Of a DNA stretch of 64,000 nucleotides, positions 3,001-58,508 are shown one piece after another. The stretch comes from an uncultured bacterium. GTDB lineage: Bacteria > Krumholzibacteriota > Krumholzibacteriia > LZORAL124-64-63. The notes beneath the pieces were generated by a model, which was not told the origin of the DNA, did not search any database, and saw only the letters and a program-made list of their open reading frames with translations. Location: positions 1 through 64,000 of the forward strand of contig CALEMW010000068.1 of the NCBI GenBank assembly GCA_937910695.1, written 5' to 3'. The position numbers were made by a program, and so were the translations under genes. Within the stretch, counting starts at the first letter, position 1; each line of letters opens with the position of its first letter.

Positions 3001-3304
3001 TGGCGAAGCTCTGGTTCTGCTGGAGGTAGCGCACCTCCCGCACGATGGGATCCAGGAGAGCCTCTCCTCCCTTCAGGAGGATGTCGGCCATGGGCTCGGG
3101 GTCCTCCAGGTTCAGTTCTGGGTGGGACTGTGCCAGGCGGGCTCGGATGAACAGCGGGACATCCATCGCGAAGGCGTCCGGCTCAAACCTCCGCACGATC
3201 CTATTTACCACCTGCGTCTGCGCTGGAGATCCCTCCGACAGGTCCACGTCAGGGTCCCACTCAAAAAGTACCTGCTCCACGAAGCTCTTGTCGTTCTGGG
3301 CCAT
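1..3304 (-). CDS. Baseplate J-like / wedge structural protein, partial (runs off left edge)
   Basis: Manual reverse-strand translation from ATG at 3304 (MAQNDKSFVEQVLFEWDPDVDLSEGSPAQTQVVNRIVRRFEPDAF...) stays open to window edge; N-terminus resembles baseplate J/gp6-like proteins; not in ORF track because it is truncated. Confidence 0.55.
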   Translation of the reverse strand, partial: MAQNDKSFVEQVLFEWDPDVDLSEGSPAQTQVVNRIVRRFEPDAFAMDVPLFIRARLAQSHPELNLEDPEPMADILLKGGEALLDPIVREVRYLQQNQSFANVDILATEEAEALAANQFVEHRKGEFSRGTARVFFSQPRAVTFAASNIVSTTGGLKFYPTVPQSITAEQMMLNNAGSLYYVDVAYIAEKAGKEYNIAKGLLTSIAGMSSAVRVTNLARFRSGLPTETPSDLLSRTEKSLSERSINNMRGAFAKMGTTFSDLLHLQTVGHGDPEMKRDIISGGSLGPVLIYGTDGYTADDGDGDGRSELFYSATAAFTTKIGSVGAVTGFVLTVEGVDYRVTSVESAEGIRIVEWDRKASTLADNLTGMEFYVRREQLTLSKIPGGILEPNGPNGSVVIKPNEVHIGGCMDLLVRGGEPGDEMTATPRVYDESPLMSGTKLETQLAGGPTEVVRDLSLTSANDFKKRKVKPGMTLRIKSAPVAGYYTILHVQPTGTELIVSPAPGAWGEKLIYDIVDEIDVTVDEPKLPKGSGVDLRTILHSRQVLTASGTNWTDLGAANGDVLRITGETPNKGDHIVDAVTGTGGKYLVLKTPMKRTSSTEHWELFTLYGGVELPFLRMTSVGLLDSSKKSTGYDIPYSEPVDCRATEFVNTGVGTTETVGDAVIGIVGTVDISSGLSFGAGPFTLHLSFDGGVPLIYNFSGTLSRDQILAVINAVSPGIGGLVVKDGKEFLALRSSTRWLVLQYALSTASSFFGFSTTYNMDNRQIVSEDMVAWDKVAVEKKSSVYVLTGDNIGFWHLDVLSPGRLLVSWVGEDRKAVFPLPDVRATVRVGTRSLGRTRCYFLSPTSFEVRGAYRPPALPSAGAYAHPPNSVLGSFSEEDEDWAEFRYDVFGDESAYMTFVPDPELNHTVVPASSESPPNNLVVTSGSDMVVSEKLATNLAIPGKYSRGNEVDFYKREVRAGDVVKITYQPVQGTVDLSALTYPTAVQNKTLIFSLENGPNVSVTLTSSSTSVDNLITEINSRLGSTVAYKEDDTDAGKQYLRLEADFAFTLRATGSANAVLGFPTSLDTDNDAAAKGKYTVVSVGYLSGSTCDHMRLQ

Positions 3305-3955
3305 CTACATCTCCAGGTTGACCACGGCGGCCTTCCCTGACCGGGAGCGCAACAACACGCGCGCGATGAGGGATGTGGTCCTTGGGTCAAATACAGACTC
3401 CAGGATGATGGCTGCTGCCAAAGCCCCGTCGTCCTTGATACTTGTGTTCCTCGTCTGCATGGAGACCAGTTGGGATTTTGTTCTGCGAACACACATGGCA
3501 AACTGGGCGGTCACTCCCCCCGCGTTCTGCTTGGAGAAGTTCTTCCCGATCATCTCCTGTAGACCTCCCCCCGTTCCTTGACTCCAGGCGTCCGTGCCAG
3601 GAGATCGAAGCAGGAGCATGACGAAGGTCTGGACCATGCGCTGGATGCCGGAGACCACTCGTGGGTTATCCGTCAGCTCGAAGGAGAGCCTGCTCGCCTC
3701 TGTCGCGGTGAACTCGCTGCTCAGCACGGAGATGGACAGGATGGTCGCGTCGACCTGTCCAGGAGGCACCTGGGCTAGCAGCCGCGTAGAGCTGGCCACC
3801 ACGAAGCTGGGGGACTCCTCCTCGTTCAGGAAGACCTTGTCCACACTCCGGAAGTCCTCCCCGATGATCTCCACGGTCCTGGGCTCCATACCCGGCACGT
3901 TCTGGGCCGAGTTGATCGGGAGCACATCGTTCATGTAGACGACCTGGAGGTCCAT
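3305..3955 (-). CDS. Structural protein, possibly baseplate gp25/W-like with IPT/TIG-like N-terminus
   Basis: 216-aa ORF abutting baseplate J-like gene; MLLLRSPGTDAWSQGTGGGL segment. Confidence 0.4.
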   Translation of the reverse strand: MDLQVVYMNDVLPINSAQNVPGMEPRTVEIIGEDFRSVDKVFLNEEESPSFVVASSTRLLAQVPPGQVDATILSISVLSSEFTATEASRLSFELTDNPRVVSGIQRMVQTFVMLLLRSPGTDAWSQGTGGGLQEMIGKNFSKQNAGGVTAQFAMCVRRTKSQLVSMQTRNTSIKDDGALAAAIILESVFDPRTTSLIARVLLRSRSGKAAVVNLEM

Positions 3956-12351: not shown

Positions 12352-14682
12352 TTACGCGAAGCTCATCGGCTCGCCGACACTGATGTCCATCTTGACTGCC
12401 CCGCCGCCGCCGACGGCGACGTAGCCCATGCGGAGGCGAACACCGCCGGAGGGGCTCGGGGGAGTGATGGTCAGCTTCCCCACGGTGGCGGACAGGTAGA
12501 CCCGCTTGCCAACGTCGGTGACGGCCGGGAGGGCGTCCCAGATGGCGTCAGGAATGCTCACCTGACCGGACAGCTGGTAGTCTCCCGGGTTGCCAGAGGT
12601 GATGGAGCTGGGAGCGATGGCGTAGGCGTCCTGCCTGCGGCCAGTGCCGTCGGCGTCCCCGTGGTACAGCTTGGGGGTACCGGCGTCATCCTGGATGCAG
12701 ACGGGGGCTCCAGCAGAGATGGCCTCACCGGCCGTCTTGGTCAGCGTGCCGCCCGCGGCGTGCCCGTGCAGCGAGTCGGCGTTGCTGCCGTCGGTGAGGG
12801 TGTTGAGGTCCGCCGCCAGCGTGGTGCTGGTGGTGGCGACGTAGCCGGAACCGCTGTCGTTGAACTTCACGTACTGCGGCAGGTTCAGGCTGTCCACCGG
12901 AGACAGGGTGATGTCGCCGGCGGTGGTGGTGGAGAGGTCAAGGGCCCCGTTGTCGATGGTCAGGGAGCTGTTGCCCACGCCGTCGATGGTGACAACCCCC
13001 GTGGCGTCCACGTCGAACATCGCGCAGTTCACGTCCAGGGTCGCCGCGCTCTGAAGCACGAGGTTCCCGCTGGTGACGGTCTGAAGCGTGAGGTTCGCAG
13101 AGGTGAGGGAGATGTTGTGGGCGAGGCTCTCCTTGAAGACGAGGTTGTTGACCAGCACGCCGACGAAGTTCATCTCGTCAGCGGCCGCGTCGCCGAACTG
13201 CACGTTGTCCTGGAAGGTGGTGCTGCCCACCACCGTCTCAATACCGGAGACCGAGAGGTCGCCCGCGACGGTGGTGGTCACGCCGGTCTGGCCGATGGTG
13301 ATGGCCGAGGCGTTGGTGACACCCAGCTGCACGACACCGTCGGTGCCCGCAACGGAGGTCCCGCTGCCGATGGCCCCGCCCGCGCCCGCATCGAGCACGA
13401 GGTTGGCGCCAGCGCCGCCGTTCTGGTTCAGAGCACCAGCACCGCCCTGTCCGGCGGTGAGATCCAGGCTGCCGCCCGCGCCGCCAGCGGAGGTGTCGTC
13501 CACGCCGGCAGCGCCGGCACCGGACTCGATGGCGAAGGTGCCGCCAACGCCGGCGTCAGCGTCCAGCACGCCGATGCCCCGACCGTTGTTCTCGAAAGTC
13601 AGGTCCGTGGTGATGAGACCATTGACCTCGACGTCGTTGTTGGTGTTGGTGCCCAGGGTGACGTTGCCGTCCACCACCAGGGCGCCGGCCACGTCCACCG
13701 TGCCGCTGCCGAAGAAGTTGTAGTCGGGGTTGGTGGTAGCGTTGCCGAACGTGAACTGCTCGCTGCCGTTCACGGTGTCGATGGCGAGGTAGTTGTTGAC
13801 GTCCTGGCCCATGCTGAAGGCGGGGCCGAGGTTGTCCGACAGGTCGATACCGATCATCTGCCCGGCGTCCATGGCCAGATCGAAAGTCCCGGTCGGGTCC
13901 AGGTCGATGTTGCTGCCGGAGAAGGTGAAGGCCCCGCCGGTCACGGTGAGCGCAGCCGCGGCGGTCAGCGCGTTGGTGGTCACGTCCAGACCAGCAGCGG
14001 CGTCCACGTTGCCCGCGAAGGAAACCTGGCCGGAACCGAGCTGGGTGAACAGGGGGTTGTCGGTGGCGTTGCCGAAGATGATCGCATCGGTCTGGTTGTT
14101 GACCCGGATGTAGTCCACACCACCCGCGTCCACGACGAAGGCACCATCGGCGTCGTTGTTCAGGTGGATCTCGAACGGGGAACCCGCGCCCATGGCCAGG
14201 TCCACGTCGGTCAGCGCCGTACCCGTGATGGCCTGCGAGTCCACGGTGAGGGCCGCGCCAGTCACATCGAGGCCAGCCTCGGCGTTGACGTTGCCACTCA
14301 CGCCCAGAACACCCGAGATGCCGACGATGCCCGTCAGGTTCAGGGTATCCGCGTTGAGCGCGAGGATCCCATCGCCGGCACCCGCGTTGCTGGCGGTGAT
14401 GCCGATGGACTTGTCATCGGCGCTGTTGGCCGCCAGGCCGATGCTCAGGCTGTTGGTGGCGTCGATGGAGGGATCGGAGCCGTCGATGTCGACGGAGCCG
14501 CTCAGGGTAACGAGGCCGGCGGCGTTGACAGCTCCGGTCAGCGTGATGGCCTGTCCGTTGCCATCAATGCTCAAGGCACCGGATCCGGCCCCCTGGATCC
14601 CGGCGCCCACGCCGAGGGTGTCAGCCGCGGCCAGCTGCTTGAGGCCTTCGGTTTGGATTGAGAGTGCTTGCTGAAGTGCCAT
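12352..14682 (-). CDS. Repetitive Gly/Ala/Asp/Val-rich fiber or beta-helix-like structural protein
   Basis: 776 aa; repeated NVDAAAGLDVTTNALTAAAALTV / FGNATDNPLFTQLGSGQVSFAGN-type segments. Confidence 0.6.
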   Translation of the reverse strand: MALQQALSIQTEGLKQLAAADTLGVGAGIQGAGSGALSIDGNGQAITLTGAVNAAGLVTLSGSVDIDGSDPSIDATNSLSIGLAANSADDKSIGITASNAGAGDGILALNADTLNLTGIVGISGVLGVSGNVNAEAGLDVTGAALTVDSQAITGTALTDVDLAMGAGSPFEIHLNNDADGAFVVDAGGVDYIRVNNQTDAIIFGNATDNPLFTQLGSGQVSFAGNVDAAAGLDVTTNALTAAAALTVTGGAFTFSGSNIDLDPTGTFDLAMDAGQMIGIDLSDNLGPAFSMGQDVNNYLAIDTVNGSEQFTFGNATTNPDYNFFGSGTVDVAGALVVDGNVTLGTNTNNDVEVNGLITTDLTFENNGRGIGVLDADAGVGGTFAIESGAGAAGVDDTSAGGAGGSLDLTAGQGGAGALNQNGGAGANLVLDAGAGGAIGSGTSVAGTDGVVQLGVTNASAITIGQTGVTTTVAGDLSVSGIETVVGSTTFQDNVQFGDAAADEMNFVGVLVNNLVFKESLAHNISLTSANLTLQTVTSGNLVLQSAATLDVNCAMFDVDATGVVTIDGVGNSSLTIDNGALDLSTTTAGDITLSPVDSLNLPQYVKFNDSGSGYVATTSTTLAADLNTLTDGSNADSLHGHAAGGTLTKTAGEAISAGAPVCIQDDAGTPKLYHGDADGTGRRQDAYAIAPSSITSGNPGDYQLSGQVSIPDAIWDALPAVTDVGKRVYLSATVGKLTITPPSPSGGVRLRMGYVAVGGGGAVKMDISVGEPMSFA

Positions 14683-55329: not shown

Positions 55330-55771
55330 TGGCGTCCTCCTTCACAGCGTCGCAGGGGTTCCCGCGCTCGAGGACCTCCACCAGCCGCATGCCCTCGCCG
55401 TCCTTCTCAGCCCGGATGACCAGGCCGTGCGCGCGGGGGACCATCTCCTCCCCCACCCGGATCGCCTTGGTCTCCTCGTCCTCGAGGAAGGGGACGAAGG
55501 CCACCAGCTTGCGTTCAGCCCCCTCCACGATCTTCCCGGCCGCCAGGCGCCCCGCGTACTTCTCGCTGGACTTGTACATCCCCACGAACGCGCAGAACTC
55601 GCAGTGCTGGTCCGGGATGGCCACCCGCATCGGTCCGGTGTAGCGGACCTTGTCGGAACTTGGCCCCCGCATCTTGAGCAGCACAGAGGGCATGTACGCT
55701 CCGCAGATGCTGCACGCCTGCATGACGGCTGTCCCCAAGGGGGCCTCCTTGAAATTGTCGGTGCGCTTCAC
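55316..55771 (-). CDS. Hypothetical protein with two CxxC pairs
   Basis: CSICGAYMP...CEFC. Confidence 0.55.
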   Translation of the reverse strand: MKRTDNFKEAPLGTAVMQACSICGAYMPSVLLKMRGPSSDKVRYTGPMRVAIPDQHCEFCAFVGMYKSSEKYAGRLAAGKIVEGAERKLVAFVPFLEDEETKAIRVGEEMVPRAHGLVIRAEKDGEGMRLVEVLERGNPCDAVKEDANEAG

Positions 55772-56619
55772 TCCTTCCTCCTGTCTTCCAGGGCGCCGGA
55801 CAGGTCAATCCTGTTAGTCGCCTCCTCGTCGTTGATGTCAGCCCAGACGTGCAGGCGCCACTTGCCCTCGTGGTGCTCCAAGAAGATCGGCGCGCCGGCC
55901 CCATCCTCAGAGGTGCAGTCCCCCAACCCCTCAGGTACGATGACCAATCCCGCGGCCTCCTCGATGATCTGAACCGCGCGGGGCACCCGGTCATCACCGC
56001 TCACCTTGTAGGGCGGCTCAGTGCTCACGCTGTTCCAGGTCTTCCCCAGGAGAGGCTTCTTGATCATCGGCTTCTTGGGCTTGCCGATGGCCGGCTTGTC
56101 CATGCGCTGGAAGCCCACGAAGCGGGTCTCCTTCTCCCCCTCCGCGCGCGTGTGCAGCGCGCAGAGGTAGTCGCCGCCGAGGGCCACGTTGAGCACCTTC
56201 TGGATGCCCAGGCCGCCCCAGGCCACCTGGCGCGAGCTCATGTCGAGGATCCGCACGAAGGTCAAGGCCTCCATCTCCTGCCGCCGGTGGGCCACCAGCT
56301 TGTTGAGCCGCTCGATGGCCTGGTCCGGGTAGGTGGGCTTCTCCTCCTCGGGGCACGCGGCCCCACACTCCCCACGGCACTTGACCCAGCCGGCCACGTG
56401 CTCCACCGTGCCCTGCCTGCACAGGGGGCATTCATCTCCGTGGTTCGTGTTGCGCAGCTCCTGCACCTCCCTCACCGAGTAGCAGAGGTCCCCACAGTGG
56501 CTGCACTCCCCATGGGGCACGACCTCCCCGGGCTTCACAAGCTCATGAAGCCTCCCGGTGACCGGGAGAATCTGGGTCTCGTCCAGGAGGTCTTCGCAGC
56601 CCCTGCACTTGAAGATCAC
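55768..56619 (-). CDS. Multi-zinc-ribbon protein, translationally coupled to the Tnp_20-like gene
   Basis: GTG start at 56619 overlaps TGA of upstream gene; CRGCEDLL, CSHCGDLC, CPLCRQG, CRGECGAAC. Confidence 0.6.
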   Translation of the reverse strand: MIFKCRGCEDLLDETQILPVTGRLHELVKPGEVVPHGECSHCGDLCYSVREVQELRNTNHGDECPLCRQGTVEHVAGWVKCRGECGAACPEEEKPTYPDQAIERLNKLVAHRRQEMEALTFVRILDMSSRQVAWGGLGIQKVLNVALGGDYLCALHTRAEGEKETRFVGFQRMDKPAIGKPKKPMIKKPLLGKTWNSVSTEPPYKVSGDDRVPRAVQIIEEAAGLVIVPEGLGDCTSEDGAGAPIFLEHHEGKWRLHVWADINDEEATNRIDLSGALEDRRKE

Positions 56620-57485
56620 GACGCACCCCCGGAGTGGGGGGCCATGCCCAGCTTCTCCACGGCGTAGGACTCCCGCACAGGCAGGCCCTCGATGGTCCGC
56701 CACTGCTTCCACAGCTCGAGCAGGAACATCTTGACCATGTAGCGCGTGGCATCCAGGTGCCGGTGCTTGTCGTCCCGGCCCCAGGGCGCCGGCCCGCCGG
56801 TGCCCCCGCAGTTCCAGCACTCCACCTCCTTGCCCTTCTCCTCCGTCTTGCCGTCCTCACCCTTGATGATGCCCTTACGCCGGCCCGTTCCTCCGCAGCC
56901 CATGCACAATGCCACCATCTGATGCTGCCGGCGGTGCTTGCGGCCGTCGTAGACCTTCTTCCAGGCGTCGTTGGCCTTCGTCAGGCAGCCGCCCATAACA
57001 TACAAGACCTTGGCCTTGCGCTTGGGGTCGTAGTCGGCCCGCTGGCCCTTGAACCTCCTGTCGGCCTGGCCCACGGTGCCCTTGCCCTGGCAGACAGAAC
57101 ACTTGTTGCCAGGCTTGCCGCCGCAGAAGGGGCAGTTCTTGACCACCACCTTCAGGCCCATCCAGCTCCAGAGCTGCGAGGCCGTCTCGCACTTCTCGAT
57201 GTTGATCTCCGCCACCAAGAAGGCGCTGATGGCCGGCCCGATGCCCAGCTGCGCATCCAGCCACTCCTTCCAGATGGGGATCCCTTTCAGGATCCGCTTC
57301 ATGGCCTTGAGGGAGGACTTCTCCAGCACCTCCAGGCCATTCCCCATCCCCTCGAAGAACACCTTGTCAGCGTCGTCGAGGACCACCTCATCGGTGGTGT
57401 TCCTGTTTCCGCTTTGAATGCGCAGCTTCTGGAGATCCTGAAATCCCCTGTACATCATCCGCAGCTTTGTCATTTCTGGCGTCAT
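56616..57485 (-). CDS. IS110/IS116/IS902 Tnp_20-like protein with four inserted CxxC(x)G zinc motifs; no RuvC-like DEDD domain
   Basis: AQLGIGPAISAFLVAEINIEKCETASQLWSWMGLKV (HhH, Tnp_20 pattern) ... YDPKRKAKVLYVMGGCLTKANDAWKKVYDGRKHR ... KHRHLDATRYMVKMFLLELW; inserted CPFCGGKP, CSVCQGKG, CMGCGGTG, CWNCGGTG; RBS AGGAGG before ATG 57485. Confidence 0.65.
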   Translation of the reverse strand: MTPEMTKLRMMYRGFQDLQKLRIQSGNRNTTDEVVLDDADKVFFEGMGNGLEVLEKSSLKAMKRILKGIPIWKEWLDAQLGIGPAISAFLVAEINIEKCETASQLWSWMGLKVVVKNCPFCGGKPGNKCSVCQGKGTVGQADRRFKGQRADYDPKRKAKVLYVMGGCLTKANDAWKKVYDGRKHRRQHQMVALCMGCGGTGRRKGIIKGEDGKTEEKGKEVECWNCGGTGGPAPWGRDDKHRHLDATRYMVKMFLLELWKQWRTIEGLPVRESYAVEKLGMAPHSGGAS

Positions 57486-57567: not shown

Positions 57568-57595
57568 TAAAAAGGCGCCTGTATAAGCGCGCCAA
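57567..57595 (-). terminator. Rho-independent terminator between array and Tnp_20-like gene
   Basis: Minus strand GGCGCGCTTATACAGGCGCCTTTTTAGC; stem GGCGC/GCGCC then TTTTT. Confidence 0.65.
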
Positions 57596-57603
57596 CTTTT
57601 TAA

Positions 57604-58508
57604 GGGTGTCCCGCAGCGTATGGCTCGCTATCGTCATTTGGGTGTCTGGGATCAGAAGGCTCGCTTGTGCATCTCGTGTGTACAAGTAATCTTGGCTCGC
57701 CCGTCCTTTCGGGGTGACTGATCGAAATGGGGCTCGCTTCGTTGATATAGGGTTTCTCAGCACCTATGGCTCGCTTCGCATGTAGGGGTGTCTGCTCACA
57801 TTCGGCTCGCTCGTAGTGCATGGTTGTCCTGAGACCGTAAGCTCGCTGCCCACGGAGGGGTGTCCAGTTGATTGTGGCGCGCTCTGATGAGCGGGTGTCA
57901 AATATGATATGGCGCGCTTCTCGTGAAGGGGTGTCTTGTTGTTCGAGGCACGCTGGGCTTGTGAGTGCGTACAACGTCAAGTGGCTCGCTATATATGTCA
58001 GGGTGTCTATATCACTTGGGCTCGCTTTTCTCCGGGTGTCTTGGAGGTTTACGGCTCGCTAACGTTCAAAGGGTGACCAGCCTGGATAGGCTCGCTCTCT
58101 TGTACGGGGTGTCTATACGCTTTAGGCCCGCTCTCCTGGGAGGGTATCTCGATATGAGGCTCGCTTCGACCTTTAGGGTGTCCAGATCTGAGTGGCCCGC
58201 CGTTTGTTTCGGGTGTCACCTATACTCAGGCTCGCTGATGTAGCTAGGGTGTCTCGTCGAGATTCGGCTCGCTTCCTGTTCAAGGGTTATCTGCGCCACA
58301 AGGCTCGCTCATCGAAGAAGGGTGTCCAGTGTAGCTCGGCTCGCTGTTTAGTCTCGGGTGCACCACCGTTCTATGGCTCGCTCAACGGGTCGGGGTGTCC
58401 TTGTCAGAATGGCTCGCTGTGGTGTCTGGGGTGTCCATCTAGGTCAGGCGCGCAGTCTCGGTAAGGGTGTCTTTCCACGGGCGGCTCGCATAAGGATCTA
58501 GGGTGTCT
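57604..58508. repeat. Alternating short-motif array: 26 x A (GGGTGTCY) and 25 x B (GGCNCGCT) separated by 50 unique ~10-nt segments, period 18/36 nt; candidate non-coding RNA locus
   Basis: A at 57604, 57640, 57676 ... 58501 and B at 57622, 57658, 57694 ... 58483 counted by hand; 40/50 intervening segments exactly 10 nt; ORFs here are short and broken in all frames. Confidence 0.95.

What the first reader, a model, noticed from the sequence alone, without database searches (positions are those of the whole stretch)
57604..58508. Undescribed alternating-motif array: (GGGTGTCY-N10-GGCNCGCT-N10) x ~25
Seen directly: 905 nt in which two different 8-nt motifs strictly alternate. Motif A has 26 copies, 17 of them with exact GGGTGTC. 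Motif B has 25 copies, 24 of them GGCNCGC and 16 of them GGCTCGCT exactly. They are separated by 50 different intervening segments, 40 of exactly 10 nt. Half-period is 18 nt and full period 36 nt. It looks like a CRISPR-like logic (short fixed, unique variable) but with repeats far too short for CRISPR and with two alternating repeat types. The region sits in an otherwise very gene-dense phage genome and is not coding. Eighteen nt is not an integral number of DNA helical turns, which favours an RNA (or strand-read) function over a phased protein-binding array. Inference: an array of many small guides or modular RNA units.
Basis: seen in the sequence. Interest (0 to 1): 0.97.

Follow-up and report, generated by a model that had tools for sequence, protein, structure and literature searches.

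The report
Phage TIGR guide-RNA array with TasA
This stretch of a large phage genome is an array of about 25 small two-part guide RNAs beside the gene for the protein that should carry them to matching DNA; it is a new member of the TIGR-Tas family of RNA-guided systems first described in 2025, and what it aims at is still unknown.

Summary
The reading "array of many small guides" is right in kind, but "undescribed" is wrong. This is a TIGR (tandem interspaced guide RNA) array, transcribed from the minus strand (edge RGACACCC, loop AGCGAGCC). It lies upstream of tasA (56616-57485, minus). TasA passes NCBI's curated TIGR-Tas model (138 bits, cut-off 100), has solved TasH-tigRNA and TasR-tigRNA complexes as its best structural matches, and has no nuclease domain. 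The experimentally validated TIGR array of Salicola phage CGphi29 carries nearly the same repeats (AGACAACC / AGCGAGCC). I found 391 related genes in viral contigs; 36-nt periodic arrays occur in 66 of 78 newly fetched loci. The repeats show box C/D-like pair covariation. Predicted product: 25 tigRNAs of ~36 nt that guide nuclease-free TasA to bind and bend DNA. Targets were sought and not found in the phage, 25 relatives' own contigs, the binned host genome or sequenced phages. Mildly unusual: a zinc-ribbon insert in TasA, relaxed box C, AT-rich spacers, and one relative whose array lies in frame inside tasA. New member of a known kind.

The parts
57604..58508 (-). TIGR dual-repeat array, RNA sense = minus strand: 26 edge repeats (RGACACCC) alternating with 25 loop repeats (AGCGAGCC), 50 spacers of about 10 nt, giving 25 predicted tigRNAs
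   Evidence: begins and ends with an edge repeat
57575..57590 (-). intrinsic-terminator-like hairpin GCGCTTATACAGGCGC + CTTTTTAGCT directly 3' of the last edge repeat on the minus strand
   Evidence: consensus match; the hairpin energy is not unusual against shuffles
56616..57485 (-). tasA, 289 aa: Nop-domain (coiled-coil + RNA-binding) Tas protein, no HNH or RuvC nuclease domain
   Evidence: NCBIfam NF052498 138.2 bits, cut-off 100; PDB 9mty TasR E=3.5e-43 and TasH E=8.3e-29 by profile; AlphaFold pTM 0.83, best folds TasH/TasR-tigRNA complexes
57090..57134 (-). first CxxC pair in TasA (C118..C132), low-confidence loop, not seen in the closest relative
56808..56906 (-). second CxxC pair (C194..C226) around a beta hairpin: zinc-ribbon-like insert shared with L028, L053 and L056
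58515..58859 (-). upstream gene in the same direction (114 aa, unknown) ending at the array start; the array may be the 3' part of its transcript
   Evidence: no sigma-70 promoter-like site found
55768..56619 (-). downstream gene overlapping the tasA stop by 4 bases (283 aa, cysteine-rich N-terminus); not conserved beside tasA in relatives

Best explanation
The array is a TIGR array and, with the adjacent tasA gene, forms a TIGR-TasA system of a large phage. The minus strand is transcribed into a precursor. TasA and an unknown host RNase process it within the edge repeats into about 25 tigRNAs of ~36 nt, each carrying two ~9-10-nt spacers held between box D (AG) and box C (CC) anchors. A TasA dimer binds each tigRNA and uses spacer A on one DNA strand and spacer B on the other strand of an adjacent site to bind, unwind and bend the target. 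Having no nuclease domain, it should act by occupying DNA (blocking transcription or replication) rather than cutting. Shown here: array, protein family, fold, same strand as tasA, pair covariation, conservation in relatives. Inferred from Faure et al.: processing, dual-strand targeting, bending. Guessed: that the targets are competing mobile elements or host genes (roughly 50%), since no self-targets were found.
For: TasA passes the curated TIGR-Tas equivalog cut-off; sequence and fold searches return TasR and TasH complexes first. The array has the architecture of Faure et al.: two alternating 8-12-nt repeats, 9-12-nt spacers, 36-nt unit. The validated SpTIGR array of Salicola phage CGphi29 reads AGACAACC / AGCGAGCC against AGACACCC / AGCGAGCC here. 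391 relatives in viral contigs; a 36- or 37-nt period in 66 of 78 newly fetched loci. The box D first base changes together in edge and loop (AG/AG, CG/CG, TG/TG). Loop positions 2 and 7 covary, G-C 676 / A-T 281 / G-T 103 of 1133 units; in the window's own edges two units are T-A where 22 are G-C. In the relatives inspected the arrays lie on the strand of tas. Close relatives keep the repeats but gain, lose or duplicate spacers.
Against: Expression and processing are not observed. No target was found for any tigRNA. The third base of box C (A in about 84% of units across relatives) is not conserved here, and 10 of 50 spacers are irregular in length, so some units may be inactive. The terminator is only a consensus match.
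Confidence: 0.94

Rival explanations
1. A double-stranded DNA protein-binding array (iterons, parS-like or operator sites) with two half-sites, for replication, partition or regulation.
For: Short fixed motifs with strict spacing in an intergenic region; Faure et al. note occasional ParB-like partners of TasA.
Against: Sits beside a Tas gene in relatives; repeat positions 2 and 7 covary as RNA pairs, and G-T (103) outnumbers A-C (32), as expected for wobble pairs on the tas strand only; no ParB family among the 71 proteins scanned.
Confidence: 0.03
2. A degenerating, no longer functional TIGR array: units still recognisable but box C and spacing have drifted.
For: 10 of 50 irregular spacers and no conserved A after CC.
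Against: Loop repeats still 94% and edge 86% identical to consensus, similar to relatives; compensatory T-A edge pairs; tasA is intact; other relatives (L080, L081, L018/L025) share the relaxed base.
Confidence: 0.12
3. An IS110-type bridge RNA locus of a transposon.
For: Pfam and PHROGs label the protein an IS110-like transposase; shared Nop-like domain.
Against: No DEDD transposase domain; 138 bits to TIGR-Tas, no IS110 match reported for the window protein; a 25-unit array instead of one bridge RNA; no element ends seen.
Confidence: 0.01

Closest known systems
TIGR-TasH of Salicola phage CGphi29 (SpTIGR; Faure et al. 2025)
   Same: Same loop repeat AGCGAGCC and nearly the same edge repeat (AGACAACC vs AGACACCC), 36-nt unit, Tas gene adjacent; proteins homologous, E=1e-9
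   Different: CGphi29 protein carries an N-terminal HNH nuclease; ours is Nop-only with zinc-ribbon-like inserts; our array is longer, has 10-nt variable segments and lies upstream of tas
TIGR-TasA with dual-repeat array (e.g. Flavonifractor plautii FpTIGR)
   Same: Solo Nop-domain Tas protein plus dual-repeat array of 36-nt units
   Different: FpTIGR repeat letters were not available to compare; ours has 25 units where 5-15 is usual
IS110/IS621 transposase with bridge RNA
   Same: Related Nop-like RNA-binding fold, dual guide loops
   Different: No transposase domain, array instead of a single guide RNA
Box C/D snoRNP (Nop5)
   Same: Box C/D-like anchors flanking two guides; Nop domain
   Different: TIGR binds DNA rather than RNA, no methyltransferase partner known; only weak fold similarity here (1nt2, E=2)
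CRISPR array
   Same: Fixed repeats separated by variable spacers
   Different: Two alternating 8-nt repeats, ~10-nt spacers, no cas genes seen

Membership tests
TIGR-Tas | Tas protein with Nop domain | tested here: met
   NF052498 138.2 bits, cut-off 100; PDB profile and fold matches to TasR/TasH
TIGR-Tas | Array of two distinct alternating 8-12-nt repeats with 9-12-nt spacers, ~36-nt unit, next to tas | tested here: met
   array ends 118 nt upstream of the tasA start
TIGR-Tas | Box C/D-like motifs shared and covarying between edge and loop repeats | tested here: met
   xG....CC in both repeats; first base covaries among relatives; pair 2-7 covaries. Third base of box C (A) met in relatives, not in the window
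TIGR-Tas | Array starts and ends with a (truncated) edge repeat and is followed by a terminator | tested here: inconclusive
   starts and ends with an edge repeat and a terminator-like hairpin lies at 57590-57575; truncation of the end repeats was not resolved, and T-runs after arrays were not clearly enriched across relatives (7 of 80 against 4.3 expected)
TIGR-Tas | Processing into 36-nt tigRNAs bound by Tas | not testable with these tools
   needs RNA sequencing
TIGR-Tas | Spacer pair directs binding to opposite strands of a DNA target | tested here: inconclusive
   no target found in own phage, relatives or binned host
TasA subtype | No nuclease domain fused to the Nop domain | tested here: met
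   protein begins at the coiled coil; no HNH or RuvC in Pfam
TasH / TasR subtypes | N-terminal HNH or RuvC nuclease | tested here: not met
IS110 transposon | DEDD transposase domain plus bridge RNA | tested here: not met
CRISPR-Cas | Single repeat type of about 25-36 nt and cas genes | tested here: not met

The most novel reading that the evidence does not exclude
The window belongs to a zinc-ribbon TasA subfamily (window, L028, L053, L056) with relaxed box C and looser spacing. In one relative (L028) a guide array lies in frame inside the tasA gene, between two halves of the zinc ribbon, so the same DNA encodes both guides and a protein linker. The zinc ribbon would recruit an effector in place of a nuclease.
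Probability: 0.2. Interest if true: 0.55.

Novelty: new member of a known kind. Interest (0 to 1): 0.33.

Why it matters
TIGR systems are new (2025), and the natural targets, the origin of the spacers and the role of nuclease-free TasA are open questions. This locus adds a 25-unit array in a phage contig binned with a bacterial genome, and a wide comparative set. It removes one simple answer for this family: 382 tigRNAs from 25 viruses do not match their own contigs more than shuffled pairs do. It also gives a clue: spacers are AT-richer than the surrounding DNA in 72 of 75 arrays.

Tried and rejected
Self-targeting: spacer-pair targets (A then reverse complement of B, gap 0-2; geometry deduced from the 8-nt 3' overhangs) give no excess over permuted pairs in the 97-kb contig, in held viral loci or in the contigs of 25 viruses. 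Host targeting: best match in the G000 bin is 16 contiguous bases, chance level. Sequenced phages: none (sensitive only to near-perfect matches). Coding repeat: no open frame. Whole-array RNA structure: not more stable than shuffles. Rfam: nothing. PADLOC: nothing. Conserved partner gene: none of the flanking genes recurs beside tas in relatives, except one short gene (g074) with a match in L044. A second 36-nt periodicity at 13404-14378 is a repetitive fibre-like protein gene, not an array. A scan of named species genomes with the exact motif found nothing. One region-fetch call failed on length and was not repeated, so the L018, L025, L026 and L017 contigs were left out of the self-target test. 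Spacer A/B complementarity within a unit: none beyond chance.

Full report
What is there. The array is as described: 26 and 25 copies of two 8-nt motifs, 50 spacers, 40 of exactly 10 nt. It is not chance: 14 exact paired matches against 0.00 expected in shuffles. It is not coding.

The neighbour settles the identity. The next gene (56616-57485, minus strand, its start 118 nt from the array) hits PHROG 4285 "transposase" and, weakly, the IS110 C-terminal domain. Against solved structures its best sequence hit is 9mty, the TIGR-TasR complex, followed by TasH. A profile of ten relatives reaches E=3.5e-43 for TasR, 8.3e-29 for TasH and 1.8e-7 for IS621. NCBI's own TIGR-Tas model matches at 138.2 bits against a cut-off of 100. 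The AlphaFold model (pLDDT 86.7, pTM 0.83) has TasH-tigRNA and TasR-tigRNA complexes as its best fold matches. The protein begins at the coiled coil and has no nuclease domain, so it is a TasA.

What is known. Faure et al. [quoted passage not shown] The two spacers pair with opposite DNA strands. Box D and box C motifs in the two repeats covary. TasA lacks a nuclease and its role is unclear.

Strand. In the relatives inspected the array motif lies on the strand of tas as RGACACCC / AGCGAGCC. In the window a terminator-like hairpin follows the last edge repeat on the minus strand. The array therefore reads on the minus strand: 26 edges, 25 loops, 25 tigRNAs.

RNA-level evidence. Loop positions 2 and 7 are G-C (676), A-T (281) or G-T (103) in 1060 of 1133 units. 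G-T, a wobble pair on this strand, outnumbers A-C (32), which would be the wobble on the other strand. In the window's own edges 22 units are G-C and two are T-A, both changed on both sides. The box D first base changes in edge and loop together among relatives: A, C or T. Many of these sequences are related, so the counts are not independent events.

Relatives. Exact repeats recur in 26 viral stretches. An alignment search finds 391 tas relatives; 80 loci were kept, 78 of them new. A period of 36 or 37 nt occurs in 66 of those 78. The validated array of Salicola phage CGphi29 reads AGACAACC / AGCGAGCC, one base from ours. Close relatives share part of their spacers and differ in the rest, with duplicated blocks within arrays.

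How it probably works. By direct analogy: precursor RNA, processing within edges, TasA dimer with one tigRNA, dual-strand DNA binding with sharp bending, no cutting. The likeliest use is silencing or blocking of DNA of other mobile elements or of the host. This last step is a guess.

Targets. The target order (spacer A, gap 0-2, reverse complement of spacer B) was deduced from the 8-nt 3' overhangs reported for TasR. No excess of matches over permuted spacer pairs was found in the window's 97-kb contig, in 863 tigRNAs against 0.9 Mb of viral loci, or in 382 tigRNAs against their own contigs from 25 viruses. The binned host gives only chance-level matches, and that binning is itself unproven. 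Spacers are AT-richer than the surrounding DNA in 72 of 75 arrays; in the window 45% GC against 62% for the contig and 60% for its other intergenic DNA. That fits targets in AT-rich DNA, or selection for easy unwinding; it argues against spacers copied at random from the phage.

What is unusual. The window TasA carries four CxxC motifs. The second pair flanks a beta hairpin and is shared with L053, L056 and L028; the first pair is missing in the closest relative, L053. The A after CC (about 84% of units across relatives) is missing here, and spacer lengths are less regular. In L028 one of three arrays lies inside the tasA frame between two CxxC motifs, with all 17 spacers exactly 10 nt and no stop codon; shuffled spacers keep the frame open in only 3% of trials, or 0.7% with the composition of the neighbouring arrays. 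It is a single contig, so an assembly oddity is not excluded.

Verdict.

Noticed in passing
L028:1449-1762 within L028:911-1984: TIGR array nested in frame inside the tasA coding sequence (12-codon period, ETPxxxERAxxx), between two CxxC halves of a zinc ribbon; all 17 spacers exactly 10 nt.
   Followed up: partly
L134:3385-3748 (Rhodococcus phage Peregrin) and L133:3623-3829 (Arthrobacter phage Talia1610): Cultured actinophages with TIGR-Tas genes (205 and 189 bits) preceded by palindromic stem pairs of 11-25 nt with 31-44 nt between the arms, resembling the stem-loop type of TIGR array; workable laboratory models.
   Followed up: partly
L131:4636-4990 (Microcystis phage Mvi-JY20): Cultured cyanophage with a TIGR-Tas gene and a dual-repeat array (GAAACCC / TGCGAGCC) downstream, annotated only as hypothetical.
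   Followed up: partly
L027:455-606 and the adjoining tas in L019: Array open in frame with the 5' end of tas; the true start codon is unclear, so it may be coding leader or untranslated.
   Followed up: no
75 arrays in the loci fetched: Spacers are on average 8.6 GC points lower than their own locus; lower in 72 of 75 arrays.
   Followed up: yes
window 55768-56619: Gene overlapping the tasA stop by 4 bases, cysteine-rich N-terminus, no family match; possible partner of this TasA but not found beside tas in relatives.
   Followed up: partly
window 12352-14682: Highly repetitive 776-aa protein with partial 12-residue periodicity, likely a fibre protein.
   Followed up: partly
G049 (L044:1390-2325, arrays 3018-3728): A genome of the same class carries a Tas relative with a dual-repeat array on a single-contig assembly, perhaps an integrated element.
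   Followed up: no
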